Part shown: positions 1,236 through 38,873 of the stretch, piece after piece
Layout of the letters: each line of letters starts with the position of its first letter
Numbering within the stretch: the stretch's first letter is position 1
Assembly (NCBI RefSeq): GCF_026151205.1
Contig: NC_087072.1
Coordinates: 10,330,169 to 10,394,168 of the forward strand
DNA from: Bolinopsis microptera
Taxonomy: Eukaryota > Ctenophora > Tentaculata > Lobata > Bolinopsidae
DNA: 64,000 nt
Reading direction: 5' to 3'
The notes under the pieces: model-generated
The model's input: the letters and a program-made list of their open reading frames with translations, nothing else
The model's database searches: none
Told to the model about the DNA's origin: nothing
Position numbers and translations under genes: made by a program

Positions 1236-1343
1236 ATGGCGATGCTATTTGACCAACCGCTTGACGACTTTTCTATGGACGACCTATGTGGATATAACAA
1301 CACGATCATCGATCAAAACTTCTGGGATGCTGAGGAGAACAAG
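1236..1343 (+). CDS. Myc coding exon 1
   Basis: 36 codons from ATG to the AAG|gtatgt donor. It encodes the MB0-like N-terminus. The start is the first ATG after a strong acceptor (AG at 1220-1221), giving only 14 nt of leader in this exon. Confidence 0.9.
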
Positions 1344-4300
1344 GTATGTTCGAGATTCCAGACAAATTCCAGACGCATTTTAAAGCGTTTGTTTTCATGT
1401 TTTCAACCTATTGGGTTACAAATAATATTTCCGCGATGAAGTGGTAATTGAATGAATCACCGCGAATCTTTCAAAATAATTTCATTATTTACAAATCATC
1501 CCAACTTGTAACATAGGTGTTTTTGCATTTCCAGAATGCTGAGCATCTAGATACTCGGAATAACATCAAATATAACTTTAAAACTATTTCAGTTCAATCT
1601 GGGACCACTTCTCCCGACCCCGCCCTTATCTCCGGATCAGCAGCTACAACTGAAACAGGAGGCCGAGGCCATGGAACCCTGGTCCACTGATGCTGAAGTA
1701 GAATGCTACTTTTCTCTCAACCAGAGCCACAACATTGTCCTCAACGACAGGATCTGGTGTGACGAGAAGATCCTGACTCCAACTGAAATGCTAGACAACA
1801 GTCTAAAACTGATGACCCCGATAATGGATGACATGGTGCTGAACCCAGCCCGGATCCGTCCCATCACCCCTCTAACCCCCATCAAGCATGAAGTAAACCA
1901 CTCAACTCCCCTCAAAGTTGACGAGTCCCCGATGAAGAAACAACGCCAAGCCCCTAAACCTCTACAAGCCCCTAAATTCCGACTTGAAAGGTTTCCAATT
2001 GTGAAGATCAAGGATGAACCTGTGTCTCCGACCATCTCTTCCCCACGGTGTTTCTTCGCACCTCCACCTCTAAAGATGACCACTGAATCCACCTTCCCGG
2101 ATCACAGCTCCAGCATGACCACAGTGGAGATCAAAGAGGAGCCCCTGGAGTATGTGCCACCCATTAAACCCGACACAAGGATTAGAGTCACCGTTAAAAA
2201 GGAGCCCTCCTTCGACTTCACAGAAAACAGTCACTCAGAGGTGAGAAGAGTTTTTAAGCTTAACATGTTTTTGTAATGCATCAGCCTGATATTAGTCCTC
2301 AATTCTTATTCAACAGATATCATAATCTCATTTAGAGTGAGTTGTGGTTTAGAATCTCTACTTTTGTGGTTATGCATGGTTAGCAAGGTTACGGAATCTG
2401 CGAAATATGATAATACTTATTTTAAAACTAAACTAATTTTCTGCATTTCAGCTTGTTTTGAAGGAGCCAACGCGGAGTCCGAGAGGGCGGAGCGCGAAGC
2501 GACAGTTACAGTGTTCGAGCAGCAGCAGTAGCAGTAGTTCGAGTAAAATTCAAGATGTAACGATAGAAGAGAGACCGGTAAAAACAGAAAGAAGGAGCTC
2601 CTTACGATCATCCGACTCATTTTCAGGTTTGTTTGGCATCAGTTACCAGAGTTTGCATATTTAATTTTAGCATATTTTGTGGCAGTTAAACGGGATTTGG
2701 TGGCCAACCGCCAAGCAGAGAGCAATGAGCATGTCTCACAAATCTGAGCAGTCTTAAATCCGCATGACCATCCGCATCCGTCATTAGCCAGATTAGCCAG
2801 AACTTCTTTTTCGGTTGCTGGAACCTTGCCTGAAAGGACCTAGAAAGGGCGTTTTTAATCTCTGGCATTGCAAATCAGGCCACCTTTTCGGGCAGATAAG
2901 TGATAAGAGCCAACAGAGGTCCGGTGAAGTTAGCGCCTGCAACCTGCAAATGCAGTGGTATTCGACTGTTCTGGCTTTATCCCAGGAGCGGGCGGGCTAG
3001 CTGGCTAGCATACAAAGTTGCCACTAACGCGGGGGGTTCTCCTTACATTTTACCTGTCAGAGATTTGGGCTGAGGGTCTGCACGTCTGCCACTCCATCTC
3101 TCTCTCTCTCTCTCTCTCTCTCTCTCTCTCTCTCTCTCTCTCTCTCTCTCTCTCTCTCTCTCTCTCTCTCTCTCTCTCTCTCTCTCTCTCTCTCTCTCTC
3201 TCTCTCTCTCTCTCTCTCTCTCTCTCTCTCTCTCTCTCTCTCTCTCTCTCTCTCTCTCTCTCTCTCTCTCTCTCTCTCTCTCTCTCTCTCTCTCTCTCTC
3301 TCTCTCTCTCTCTCTCTCTCTCTCTCTCTCTCTCTCTCTCTCTCTCTCTCTCTCTCTCTCTCTCTCTGGGGTGCCGGCTTGCTTCCTCCTCCATTTGTCA
3401 CCCTGCTGTCCTGCTCTGTGTCCCTATGTTGTCCTACTGGTGGCACACAATGTAGCACAGTATTGGGTGACGGATTGTTTTACTGAAGAACAATACAGCT
3501 TGCCCGCATCCTGGTTACGACTCTGACTATGTCTTAAGTTGTTCAAGTTCTGCCCTCCTACCTTATAACATATTTTAATACATGATATAAATATCAGAGA
3601 GGTGGTAAGCTATTAATTTGTCTCGACGGAAATCATAGCGTATGAACTGTTCTAAATTTGAACTTGGTCCACACTCAGAGGAAATGAAACCGTTTTAAAA
3701 CGCCATGACGTTAGTTTAAAAAATAATGTCATGGCGGTGATCTTTGAAAAGGAGAAAATTCACACTGTGCCGAATGGCTTGTAAATTTAGATAATGGATG
3801 GAGTCTAAAATTGGAACCAGTCGTAACCTCGCCCTCTTAGAGTTAGCCATGGTTCTATTTCTATACACACGGTATGAGTTCACCAGGCACATGAGTCGCA
3901 ACTATTGTAGATCTAATAGGTATTGACTATTGTTATTAGGTAGTTAAGTATATTGCTAGTTACTGGTTGAGCTATCGGCATTCGGCAGCGGCATTATCAA
4001 GTCTGATTATTATGACGCAGGTTAGACTTTCTTCTTGACGCAGAACAGGGCTGCCGTGCTGATTATTATGAATTATAGACACTCAAGTCACAATTATAAG
4101 AGGTGGTTACCTGCAACAAGCCCTGCCACAACTAGCGCCACCTTGTAGCCAGTTAACTCGAATTTTAGTCCATCTATCTCTGCTGCTGGCTGAATGGTTT
4201 TATCACTCACCACCCCCGCAGTTGAAGCGTGCTGTCTTTAGAATCCCTACAACCCTAGCCAGTGGACAGTTCAAAAGTTTGCACTTCAGTCATAATAAAT

Positions 4301-37900: not shown

Positions 37901-38873
37901 ATTATTGTGTTTATCAAATACACGGATATTTGTAAACAATAAATTTTGAAATGTGTAAATTGTGATTTAATAGCCCGACTAGATATATCAGCAAGATCAG
38001 TTTGGAATGCGTTGGAAAGAGCATTTTTCGATGTAAGAGTGTTTCACGCTCCTGCTCCAACCAACGCAGCTAGAAACCAATTCCTACGATGTATTTGGCT
38101 CACGAGACTGAGAAGAAAAGAGCATATAATGCAAGGGTCCTAGAAGTGGAAAAAGCTTCCTTTACACCTTTAGTTTTCTCCACAACAGGAGGCATGGGAG
38201 TCGAAGATGGAATCTCCAATGGGTCAGCAATATTCAGACTCAGTTACATATCTTAGAAAGCGCTTGCGCTTTGAGGTATTAAAGCCAACAGTTATTTCGA
38301 TAAGGGGGGACAGAGGGCCCAAGTTGCGATATAAACCAGACAATATTGAACATTTAGATTTAAATATTGAGCCCTTTGGCTAGAGAATAATTTCTTAGAT
38401 ATTTTGGACAGTTTTTAATATTGGTAATGTTAATGAATTGTAATTGATTGATATATAATATTTAGGCCTGTGGCCATTTTTCGAATTATTAGCTTTGTTA
38501 AAATAAACTTATTTGTTAGGCCTTCACAAAAAAGCAGACAGGAAAATGTGTTTAGCGGGGCCCCAGTCCTATCTAGGAGAGTCATAACTAGGAGATGATG
38601 CTTTATAATTATGTTTGAGATAAGCATTGTCAGTAAACAAACATGAGGTTTCAATTTAAATGGATTAAGGTCAAAACTCAAATTCATGGCTTTGTTTCAC
38701 TCAAAAAAGCCATAAATTCAAAATGAGAGGTTTAAAAAAAGGTAAAGTCCATCAAAATTAAACTGTTTACTGAAGTGTTAAGTTTACTTACTCTCAAAAT
38801 CAAGGAAGACATTGTCAGGCAGTTTAAAGTTGTTGCTGTCCTCCTTTCGTAGTAGCTGGAGCAGATTACCCAT
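25842..38873 (-). CDS. CYRI (FAM49) Rac1-binding regulator of the Scar/WAVE complex (11 coding exons)
   Basis: CYRI proteins bind GTP-Rac1 at the plasma membrane and oppose WAVE-driven actin branching. Eleven exons with GT-AG introns join in phase into 324 codons, the same length as human CYRI-B. The N-terminus MGNLL keeps the myristoylated Gly2, and FLDFEN matches the family start. The DUF1394/CYFIP-like core contains [63 protein letters not shown] and [18 protein letters not shown]. The Arg pair after SFY, which in human CYRI-B (R160/R161) contacts Rac1, is at about 161/162. The last exon ends ELP-free, with KKLLAE then TAG. An acceptor lies 5 nt before the ATG. It faces Myc tail to tail, and the upstream same-strand neighbour ends about 350 bp away. 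Identification is secure. Confidence 0.97.
28658..28728 (-). CDS. CYRI coding exon 10
   Basis: 71 nt, donor gtacga. Encodes [16 protein letters not shown], one of the most conserved family segments. Confidence 0.95.
28996..29122 (-). CDS. CYRI coding exon 9
   Basis: 127 nt between aatttcag and gtaagt. Encodes [20 protein letters not shown], nearly identical to the human family signature. Confidence 0.96.
30522..30601 (-). CDS. CYRI coding exon 8
   Basis: 80 nt between cgtttcag and gtaagt. Encodes [11 protein letters not shown] and [10 protein letters not shown]. Confidence 0.95.
30734..30847 (-). CDS. CYRI coding exon 7
   Basis: 114 nt, phase 0, between ccttacag and gtttct. Encodes [18 protein letters not shown]. 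Confidence 0.95.
32405..33195. repeat. Imperfect foldback element in a CYRI intron
   Basis: Two arms in opposite orientation: gtgtgtagttgattatgcat... plus gtccttcgttaggtcatttt at 32425-32500 and ...ggtctaaagtgctcactttt at 32700-32720, matched by reverse complements at 33100-33190 and 33005-33035. The left arm carries extra sequence. It looks like a degenerate MITE or foldback transposon of about 790 bp. No coding content. Confidence 0.75.
33905..33979 (-). CDS. CYRI coding exon 6
   Basis: 75 nt, phase 0. Encodes [16 protein letters not shown], including the Arg pair that binds Rac1 in human CYRI-B. The open frame runs on into the intron by chance; the gtgagt donor at 33904 fits the family alignment. 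Confidence 0.94.
34630..34689 (-). CDS. CYRI coding exon 5
   Basis: 60 nt, phase 0, between tattccag and gtattt. Encodes [20 protein letters not shown]. Confidence 0.95.
34939..35001 (-). CDS. CYRI coding exon 4
   Basis: 63 nt, phase 0, 21 codons ending in MESLENHQ, aligning with the short loop of human CYRI before ALAKQFA. The acceptor (tacctcag) has a weak pyrimidine tract. Confidence 0.88.
35333..35446 (-). CDS. CYRI coding exon 3
   Basis: 114 nt, phase 0, between gtgttgcag and gtaatg. Encodes [20 protein letters not shown] and a helical segment ending in ELDKQ. Confidence 0.94.
35765..35886 (-). CDS. CYRI coding exon 2
   Basis: 122 nt between ctatttcag and gtaaat. Encodes [12 protein letters not shown] and [11 protein letters not shown], matching the IY...VL...ILEDLQSYRGA pattern of human CYRI. 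Confidence 0.94.
35900..36115. repeat. Degenerate 10-bp minisatellite
   Basis: About 20 diverged units of acatacc(t/a)(g/t)tt in CYRI intron 1, starting within 15 nt of the exon 2 acceptor. A 71-codon frame across it is an artefact. Confidence 0.9.
37973..38383 (+). pseudogene. Fragment of a retroelement C-terminal domain, nested in CYRI intron 1
   Basis: On the strand opposite CYRI. Reads [20 protein letters not shown] and [11 protein letters not shown], then after frame changes [29 protein letters not shown] and LDLNIEPFG before TAG at 38381. Each block matches, in order, the element at 42533-43379, so it is a 5'-truncated, frameshifted copy of the same family. The DV..FFDVRV acidic residues fit a restriction-like nuclease fold; that is inference. 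Confidence 0.8.
38792..38873 (-). CDS. CYRI coding exon 1
   Basis: Encodes [12 protein letters not shown] through FLDFE, donor gtaagt. ATG at 38873. The MG start supports N-myristoylation. A splice acceptor (attgtag) lies only 5 nt upstream. Confidence 0.94.

What the first reader, a model, noticed from the sequence alone, without database searches (positions are those of the whole stretch)
1236..38873. Myc and CYRI are adjacent and convergent, as in both human paralogons
Seen: Myc on + (1236-8073) and CYRI/FAM49 on - (25842-38873), tail to tail, with no other host gene recognised between them. Known: in human, MYC and CYRIB lie at 8q24 and MYCN and CYRIA at 2p24, with MYC/MYCN on the forward strand and CYRIB/CYRIA on the reverse strand. 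Inference: the pairing predates the vertebrate genome duplications and may reach back to early animals. Such retention over so long a time often reflects long-range regulation shared across the interval.
Basis: partly seen in the sequence, partly recalled or inferred. Interest (0 to 1): 0.85.

Follow-up and report, generated by a model that had tools for sequence, protein, structure and literature searches.

The report
Ancient Myc–CYRI gene pair
In what is very probably a comb jelly genome, the growth gene Myc and the cell-shape gene CYRI sit next to each other, tail to tail, as their human relatives do in two places, so the pairing may be as old as animals, though what keeps them together is not shown.

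Summary
Myc (+, 1236-8073, 423 aa) and CYRI/FAM49 (-, 38873-25842, 324 aa, 55% identical to CYRI-B of PDB 6yjj) have complete coding models, are convergent, and show no second copy in their genome at E<=0.001. Six-frame Pfam scans of the 17,768 bases between find only a Penelope-like element. The window lies in a 26.2 Mb contig; 13 chromosome-scale contigs fit Bolinopsis microptera, a ctenophore. If inherited, the pair dates to the common ancestor of ctenophores and humans. Two corrections: a mouse gene table lists Gsdmc between Myc and Fam49b, and the linkage looks narrow (V-ATPase C is on C5; no ArfGap match reported is on C1). Regulation is unproven: papers place FAM49B outside the MYC domain. 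Five CACGTG E-boxes at 16438-18221 are a testable lead. Other animals could not be scored.

The parts
1236..1343 (+). Myc coding exon 1
   Evidence: ATG at 1236, donor GTATGT
1593..2240 (+). Myc coding exon 2 (contains LLPTPPLSP, Myc box I-like, and a Myc box II-like stretch)
   Evidence: acceptor TTTCAG, donor GTGAGA. Motif names by eye and recalled
7558..8073 (+). Myc coding exon 3 with basic helix-loop-helix leucine zipper
   Evidence: PF00010 E=1.4e-10; MYC best in PDB; acceptor choice uncertain
8074..25841 (.). Interval between the two stop codons, 17,768 bases, no recognised host gene
   Evidence: six-frame Pfam scans; Rfam and tRNA none
16438..18221 (.). Cluster of five CACGTG E-boxes (16438, 16698, 16821, 17759, 18216); candidate regulatory element, unproven
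   Evidence: 0 of 1000 block shuffles reach five in 2 kb; post hoc
18613..21387 (+). Penelope-like retroelement ORF, 924 aa, GIY-YIG near the N-terminus; insertion within the interval
   Evidence: GIY-YIG E=1.5e-05; 71% similar 65-nt stretches at 18272 and 22207; element label by eye and recalled
25842..25908 (-). CYRI exon 11 (last coding exon)
28658..28728 (-). CYRI exon 10
28996..29122 (-). CYRI exon 9
30522..30601 (-). CYRI exon 8
30734..30847 (-). CYRI exon 7
33905..33979 (-). CYRI exon 6, with the arginine pair aligned to R160/R161 of PDB 7ajk
   Evidence: Rac1-binding role of these residues recalled
34630..34689 (-). CYRI exon 5
34939..35001 (-). CYRI exon 4
35333..35446 (-). CYRI exon 3
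35765..35886 (-). CYRI exon 2
38792..38873 (-). CYRI exon 1, starting MGNLL

Best explanation
The convergent Myc-CYRI pair is an inherited neighbourhood: it was present in the common ancestor of ctenophores and bilaterians and was kept in this ctenophore and, after the vertebrate genome duplications, in both the MYC/CYRIB and MYCN/CYRIA copies. I put inheritance at about 0.7. How it is kept is inference (about 0.35 on its own): Myc control sequences downstream of Myc, in the interval and possibly in CYRI's introns, make rearrangements between the two genes harmful, with CYRI a bystander or boundary gene rather than a co-regulated partner. The confidence below is for inheritance, with this mechanism as its leading but unproven cause.
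For: Shown: two genes with complete coding models and no second copy at E<=0.001, neighbours among recognised genes, convergent as in human (human strands recalled). Human MYCN and FAM49A flank one intergenic region; a mouse table lists Myc, Gsdmc, Fam49b. Gene order is reported as not conserved between two ctenophores (PMC10232365), so one retained pair stands out. Two other families of the human paralogon were not found on this chromosome (V-ATPase C on C5, its place in the paralogon recalled; 0 of 11 reported ArfGap matches on C1), so the pair does not look like part of a large intact block. The interval holds 8 CACGTG sites against 2.0 expected, five of them in under 2 kb. Precedent: ancient pairs kept by regulatory sequence inside a bystander are a described kind (PMC8851819, passages).
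Against: Only one non-vertebrate genome was seen, and its species is inferred. FAM49B lies outside the MYC domain in two papers' passages. A Penelope-like element sits in the interval, so insertion there is tolerated. The missing wider linkage also fits chance. The E-box cluster was found after looking, and CACGTG is frequent in this window overall (24 against 8.2, repeats included).
Confidence: 0.6

Rival explanations
1. Chance: the two genes came together independently in the ctenophore and in the chordate lineage.
For: With about 16,000 neighbouring pairs and random order, my own estimate (no call) is one or two accidental matches to human neighbours per genome, so a search for any match will find some. 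Two other families of the human paralogon were not found on C1.
Against: The match is to a pair kept in both vertebrate paralogons, a much smaller class, and in the same orientation (strands recalled); two named genes have a 2.5e-5 chance.
Confidence: 0.25
2. Inherited but unconstrained: the pair survives because breaks in a short stretch are rare or were not fixed, with no regulatory cause.
For: The distance is only 17.8 kb; FAM49B is outside the MYC domain in papers' passages.
Against: In vertebrates the pair stays together over much longer distances (human FAM49B at 129.8 Mb; MYC near 127.7 Mb recalled). Order is reported as not conserved between ctenophores.
Confidence: 0.35
3. Functional partners: Myc drives proliferation and CYRI restrains Rac1-Scar/WAVE, and the pair is kept because they are expressed together.
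For: The N-terminal MGNLL and the arginine pair of CYRI are kept, so it is probably a working Rac1 interactor (role recalled).
Against: FAM49B was scarcely affected by a MYC-enhancer deletion in human cells, though PVT1 was unaffected too. PMC8851819 says target and bystander expression does not correlate in human regulatory blocks.
Confidence: 0.1
4. Assembly artefact joining two loci.
For: Contig joins can be wrong; elsewhere this genome shows two pairs of innexin matches with equal scores that could be uncollapsed copies.
Against: No N in 64 kb; 135 perfect TC units and 48 TGTTATA units are spanned, as long reads would; the window lies inside a 26.2 Mb contig.
Confidence: 0.03

Closest known systems
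MYC-CYRIB (human 8q24, mouse chr15) and MYCN-CYRIA (human 2p24)
   Same: Same two gene families as neighbours; convergent orientation recalled
   Different: Distance of hundreds of kb to about 2 Mb (partly recalled) instead of 17.8 kb; Gsdmc listed between at the Myc locus, and noncoding RNAs; two copies after genome duplication
Ancient metazoan microsynteny held by cis-regulation / genomic regulatory blocks (target plus bystander; e.g. Wnt7-Atxn10 in PMC8851819, Tfap4-Glis2 in PMC5429095; passages)
   Same: A regulator gene next to an unrelated gene with long introns, kept over very long times
   Different: No regulatory element, conserved noncoding sequence or chromatin contact has been shown here; both genes point toward each other
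Chromosome-scale ancestral linkage groups (PMC10232365, passages)
   Same: Also a conserved linkage between ctenophores and other animals
   Different: Those are whole-chromosome groups irrespective of order; this is a two-gene adjacency, and two other families of the vertebrate paralogon were not found on the chromosome

Membership tests
Myc transcription factors | basic helix-loop-helix leucine zipper closest to MYC | tested here: met
   MYC 53 bits, MAX 37, MITF 29, MAD 20 among PDB chains; PF00010
Myc transcription factors | N-terminal Myc boxes | tested here: inconclusive
   LLPTPPLSP at the box I place by eye (recalled motif); no Pfam Myc N-terminal hit at E<=0.1
CYRI / FAM49 | full-length CYRIA/B Rac1-binding domain and MGN start | tested here: met
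   PF07159 positions 1-301 of 301, E=1.4e-125; 55% to CYRI-B of 6yjj
Ancient metazoan microsyntenic pair | same neighbours in distant animal lineages | tested here: met
   this genome against order in papers' passages (MYCN-FAM49A; mouse Myc-Gsdmc-Fam49b). Two lineages only; species of this genome inferred; human strands recalled
Ancient metazoan microsyntenic pair | adjacency in further animal phyla | not testable with these tools
   no other animal genome at hand; CYRI scans of prokaryote and viral contigs confirmed none
Genomic regulatory block (target plus bystander) | regulatory elements of the target in or beyond the bystander | not testable with these tools
   no chromatin data or related genome; only an E-box cluster
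Genomic regulatory block (target plus bystander) | both genes in one regulatory domain | not tested
   not testable for this genome; papers' passages place vertebrate FAM49B outside the MYC domain, which speaks against; not filed as a member

The most novel reading that the evidence does not exclude
Myc has had a dedicated downstream control interval, bounded by CYRI, since before ctenophores split from other animals. The E-box cluster at 16438-18221 is a Myc-bound autoregulatory element in it, and the vertebrate MYC and MYCN downstream deserts are the stretched descendants of this interval.
Probability: 0.12. Interest if true: 0.92.

Novelty: new member of a known kind. Interest (0 to 1): 0.6.

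Why it matters
Local gene order is reported as not conserved even between two ctenophores, so a pair shared with human would be among the older known animal neighbourhoods, and it involves a much-studied oncogene. It offers a way to ask how old Myc's downstream control region is, using a 17.8 kb version of an interval that spans about 2 Mb at human 8q24 (partly recalled). It can be checked quickly on public chromosome-scale genomes.

Tried and rejected
Relatives of CYRI were sought in prokaryote genome contigs and viral contigs in case of host contamination: 0 confirmed in 4 scans. Sponge or placozoan origin was considered from the SRCR frames and set aside: innexin gives 18 matches (its absence from sponges and placozoans is recalled). 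No RHD match was found, which the tool warns does not show absence. Wider linkage on C1 was tried with two families: V-ATPase C gave 4 exon matches, all on C5; ArfGap gave 11 reported matches, 0 on C1, but counts are lower bounds there and ASAP itself was not singled out. NBAS did not complete. The frame upstream of CYRI (39229-39825, weak TPR) could not be named. Ten kb upstream of Myc gave no Pfam match over a cut-off, one below it at E=0.02. The Myc introns and the plus strand at 39000-46000 and 55500-57500 were not scanned against Pfam frame by frame. Of 64 palindromic hexamers tested in the interval, CACGTG and AAGCTT both reached 0 of 300 shuffles by count; this is post hoc. A bacterial promoter scan was uninformative. 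The same codon-usage score put the TPR-like exon and the Penelope-like ORF below zero, so it is a poor test.

Papers: passages only from PMC7865353, PMC10446492, PMC5774710, PMC8851819, PMC5429095, PMC9023564, PMC4403348, PMC10911929, PMC4766096, PMC8764030, PMC7308414, PMC10177328, PMC5064789, PMC10232365; passages and one section of PMC9964533. Not held: PMC3514665, 10.1093/molbev/msab225, PMC10069465. Ten searches were made. In their listings and in the passages above I saw no statement of a Myc-CYRI pair outside vertebrates; most listed papers were not opened, listings were cut at 10-20 rows, the library lacks most subscription papers, and supplements could not be read.
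Full report
Observation. Stop-to-stop frames show a Myc-like protein on the plus strand and CYRI pieces on the minus strand. Reading splice sites directly gives an 11-exon CYRI gene from 38873 to 25842, all 10 introns GT-AG, with an open joined frame. Its 324-aa protein covers all 301 positions of Pfam PF07159 (E=1.4e-125) and aligns over residues 1-322 with two CYRI-B chains of the PDB, 6yjj and 7ajk (their species, whale shark and human, are recalled); identity to 6yjj is 55%. The start MGNLL and an arginine pair aligned to R160/R161 of 7ajk are kept; their roles in membrane anchoring and Rac1 binding are recalled. 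Myc has three coding exons from 1236 to 8073. Its bHLH-zipper is nearest MYC among solved structures (MYC 53, MAX 37, MITF 29, MAD 20 bits), with 35 of 81 identities to 1nkp_A. The N-terminus holds LLPTPPLSP. The second intron's acceptor is the third AG at that site, the only in-frame one of three tried, so a few residues there are uncertain. No transcript data were available.

Between the genes. The 17,768 bases between the stop codons were scanned in six frames against Pfam at E<=0.1. The only hit was GIY-YIG in a 924-aa open frame, 18613-21387, which by eye also carries a reverse-transcriptase-like YVDD; I read it as a Penelope-like element with the nuclease domain near the N-terminus (label recalled). 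No Rfam match at gathering score and no tRNA was found in the window. A small codon-usage score, trained on four sequences, gave one weak outlier among 52 ORFs (17624-17839). It put the TPR-like exon and the Penelope-like ORF below zero, so it is a poor test. "No other host gene recognised" therefore holds, but a gene without a known domain is not excluded.

Where it comes from. After many busy replies, the genome search answered. The window is G000:C1:10330169-10394168 of a 264.65 Mb assembly in 232 contigs. All four CYRI matches and all three Myc matches reported at E<=0.001 lie in the window. Lengths were seen for 21 of 232 contigs: C1-C13 are 15.2-26.2 Mb, and C14 is 0.2 Mb. C1-C13 sum to 258.07 Mb, 97.5% of the bases held, so the other 219 contigs share 6.6 Mb. 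The published Bolinopsis microptera assembly has 13 chromosome-scale scaffolds with 97.23% of bases, and a k-mer 1n size near 254 Mb (PMC10232365, passages). The last contig held, C232, is 10,124 bases, so dropped shorter contigs could explain the small difference. Eighteen innexin matches and no RHD match (weak) agree with a ctenophore (the expectations are recalled). Hormiphora also has n = 13 in that paper, so the species is inferred from size, not named by any tool.

Comparison with vertebrates. Passages of papers give MYCN and FAM49A on either side of one region, and a table lists Myc, Gsdmc, Fam49b, Asap1 for mouse chromosome 15. Gsdmc in that list means the Myc-Fam49b pair is not strictly adjacent in mouse; the human position of GSDMC is recalled. 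FAM84A and FAM84B are also named as neighbours of MYCN and MYC, which fits a duplicated block.

Is it chance? For two named single-copy genes, adjacency is about 1e-4 and with orientation 2.5e-5 (assuming 20,000 genes). Over a whole genome, however, I estimate one or two accidental matches to human neighbours. Restricting to pairs kept in both vertebrate paralogons, perhaps 100-200 by my guess, brings the expected accidental number well under 0.1. These two estimates come from no call. Gene order is reported as not conserved even between Hormiphora and Bolinopsis. Against inheritance of a larger block, V-ATPase C lies on C5 (its membership in the paralogon is recalled) and none of 11 reported ArfGap matches lies on C1 (a lower bound, and ASAP was not singled out). 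This leaves either a tightly kept pair or coincidence; I favour the former at about 0.7.

Mechanism. The usual explanation for such pairs is a target gene whose control elements lie in or beyond a bystander (PMC8851819; Tfap4-Glis2 in a sponge, PMC5429095). For MYC the vertebrate evidence seen does not place CYRI in the same domain: FAM49B is stated to be outside the MYC TAD (PMC8764030), and Fam49b is placed in a domain adjacent to Myc's (PMC7308414). PMC8764030 also found FAM49B scarcely affected by a MYC-enhancer deletion, but PVT1, inside the MYC TAD, was unaffected as well, so that result discriminates little. CYRI is perhaps better seen as a boundary than a co-regulated partner. In the window, CACGTG occurs 8 times in the interval against 2.0 expected from block shuffles (1 of 1000 reach 8), and five lie within 16438-18221 (0 of 1000). 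The rest of the window, without a tandem array and one duplicate, has 9 against 6.0 expected (43 of 300 reach 9). There is none at 1-8073 and one in the CYRI span. This is a post hoc lead, and CACGTG is also bound by USF and MITF/TFE factors (recalled).

Verdict. The age inference is plausible but rests on one non-vertebrate genome. The regulatory inference is open.

Noticed in passing
18613-21387 (+): Penelope-like element ORF of 924 aa with GIY-YIG near the N-terminus, uninterrupted; 71% similar 65-nt stretches at 18272 and 22207.
   Followed up: partly
39229-39825 (-): Open frame with weak TPR matches whose stop lies 355 bases upstream of the CYRI start codon on the same strand; no PDB match at E<=1.
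   Followed up: partly
51609-53489 (+): Two successive open frames, one with SRCR domains and the next with ephrin-receptor-like cysteine-rich repeats and, by eye, a transmembrane-like stretch; whether they are one gene was not tested.
   Followed up: no
40365-40791: Tandem array of 23-nt GC-rich units with periods of 99-122 that carries five of the window's 24 CACGTG sites.
   Followed up: no
43372-43749 and 45661-46037: 378-nt direct duplicate, 95% identical, in a region with LINE-like frames by eye.
   Followed up: no
39873-40037 and 47600-47763: 165-nt inverted pair, 96% identical, 7.6 kb apart; mobile-element-like.
   Followed up: no
3097-3367 and 57849-58188: 135 perfect TC units in the second Myc intron and 48 TGTTATA units; long arrays that suggest a long-read assembly.
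   Followed up: no
L009:537-1565 and L009:6614-7642: Two near-identical 342-aa frames in tandem that look by eye like seven-helix receptors, just right of the window.
   Followed up: no
G000:C1:4254005 and 4378223; G000:C7:6754013 and 6935049: Two pairs of innexin matches with equal scores, 124 and 181 kb apart: recent segmental copies or uncollapsed haplotypes.
   Followed up: no
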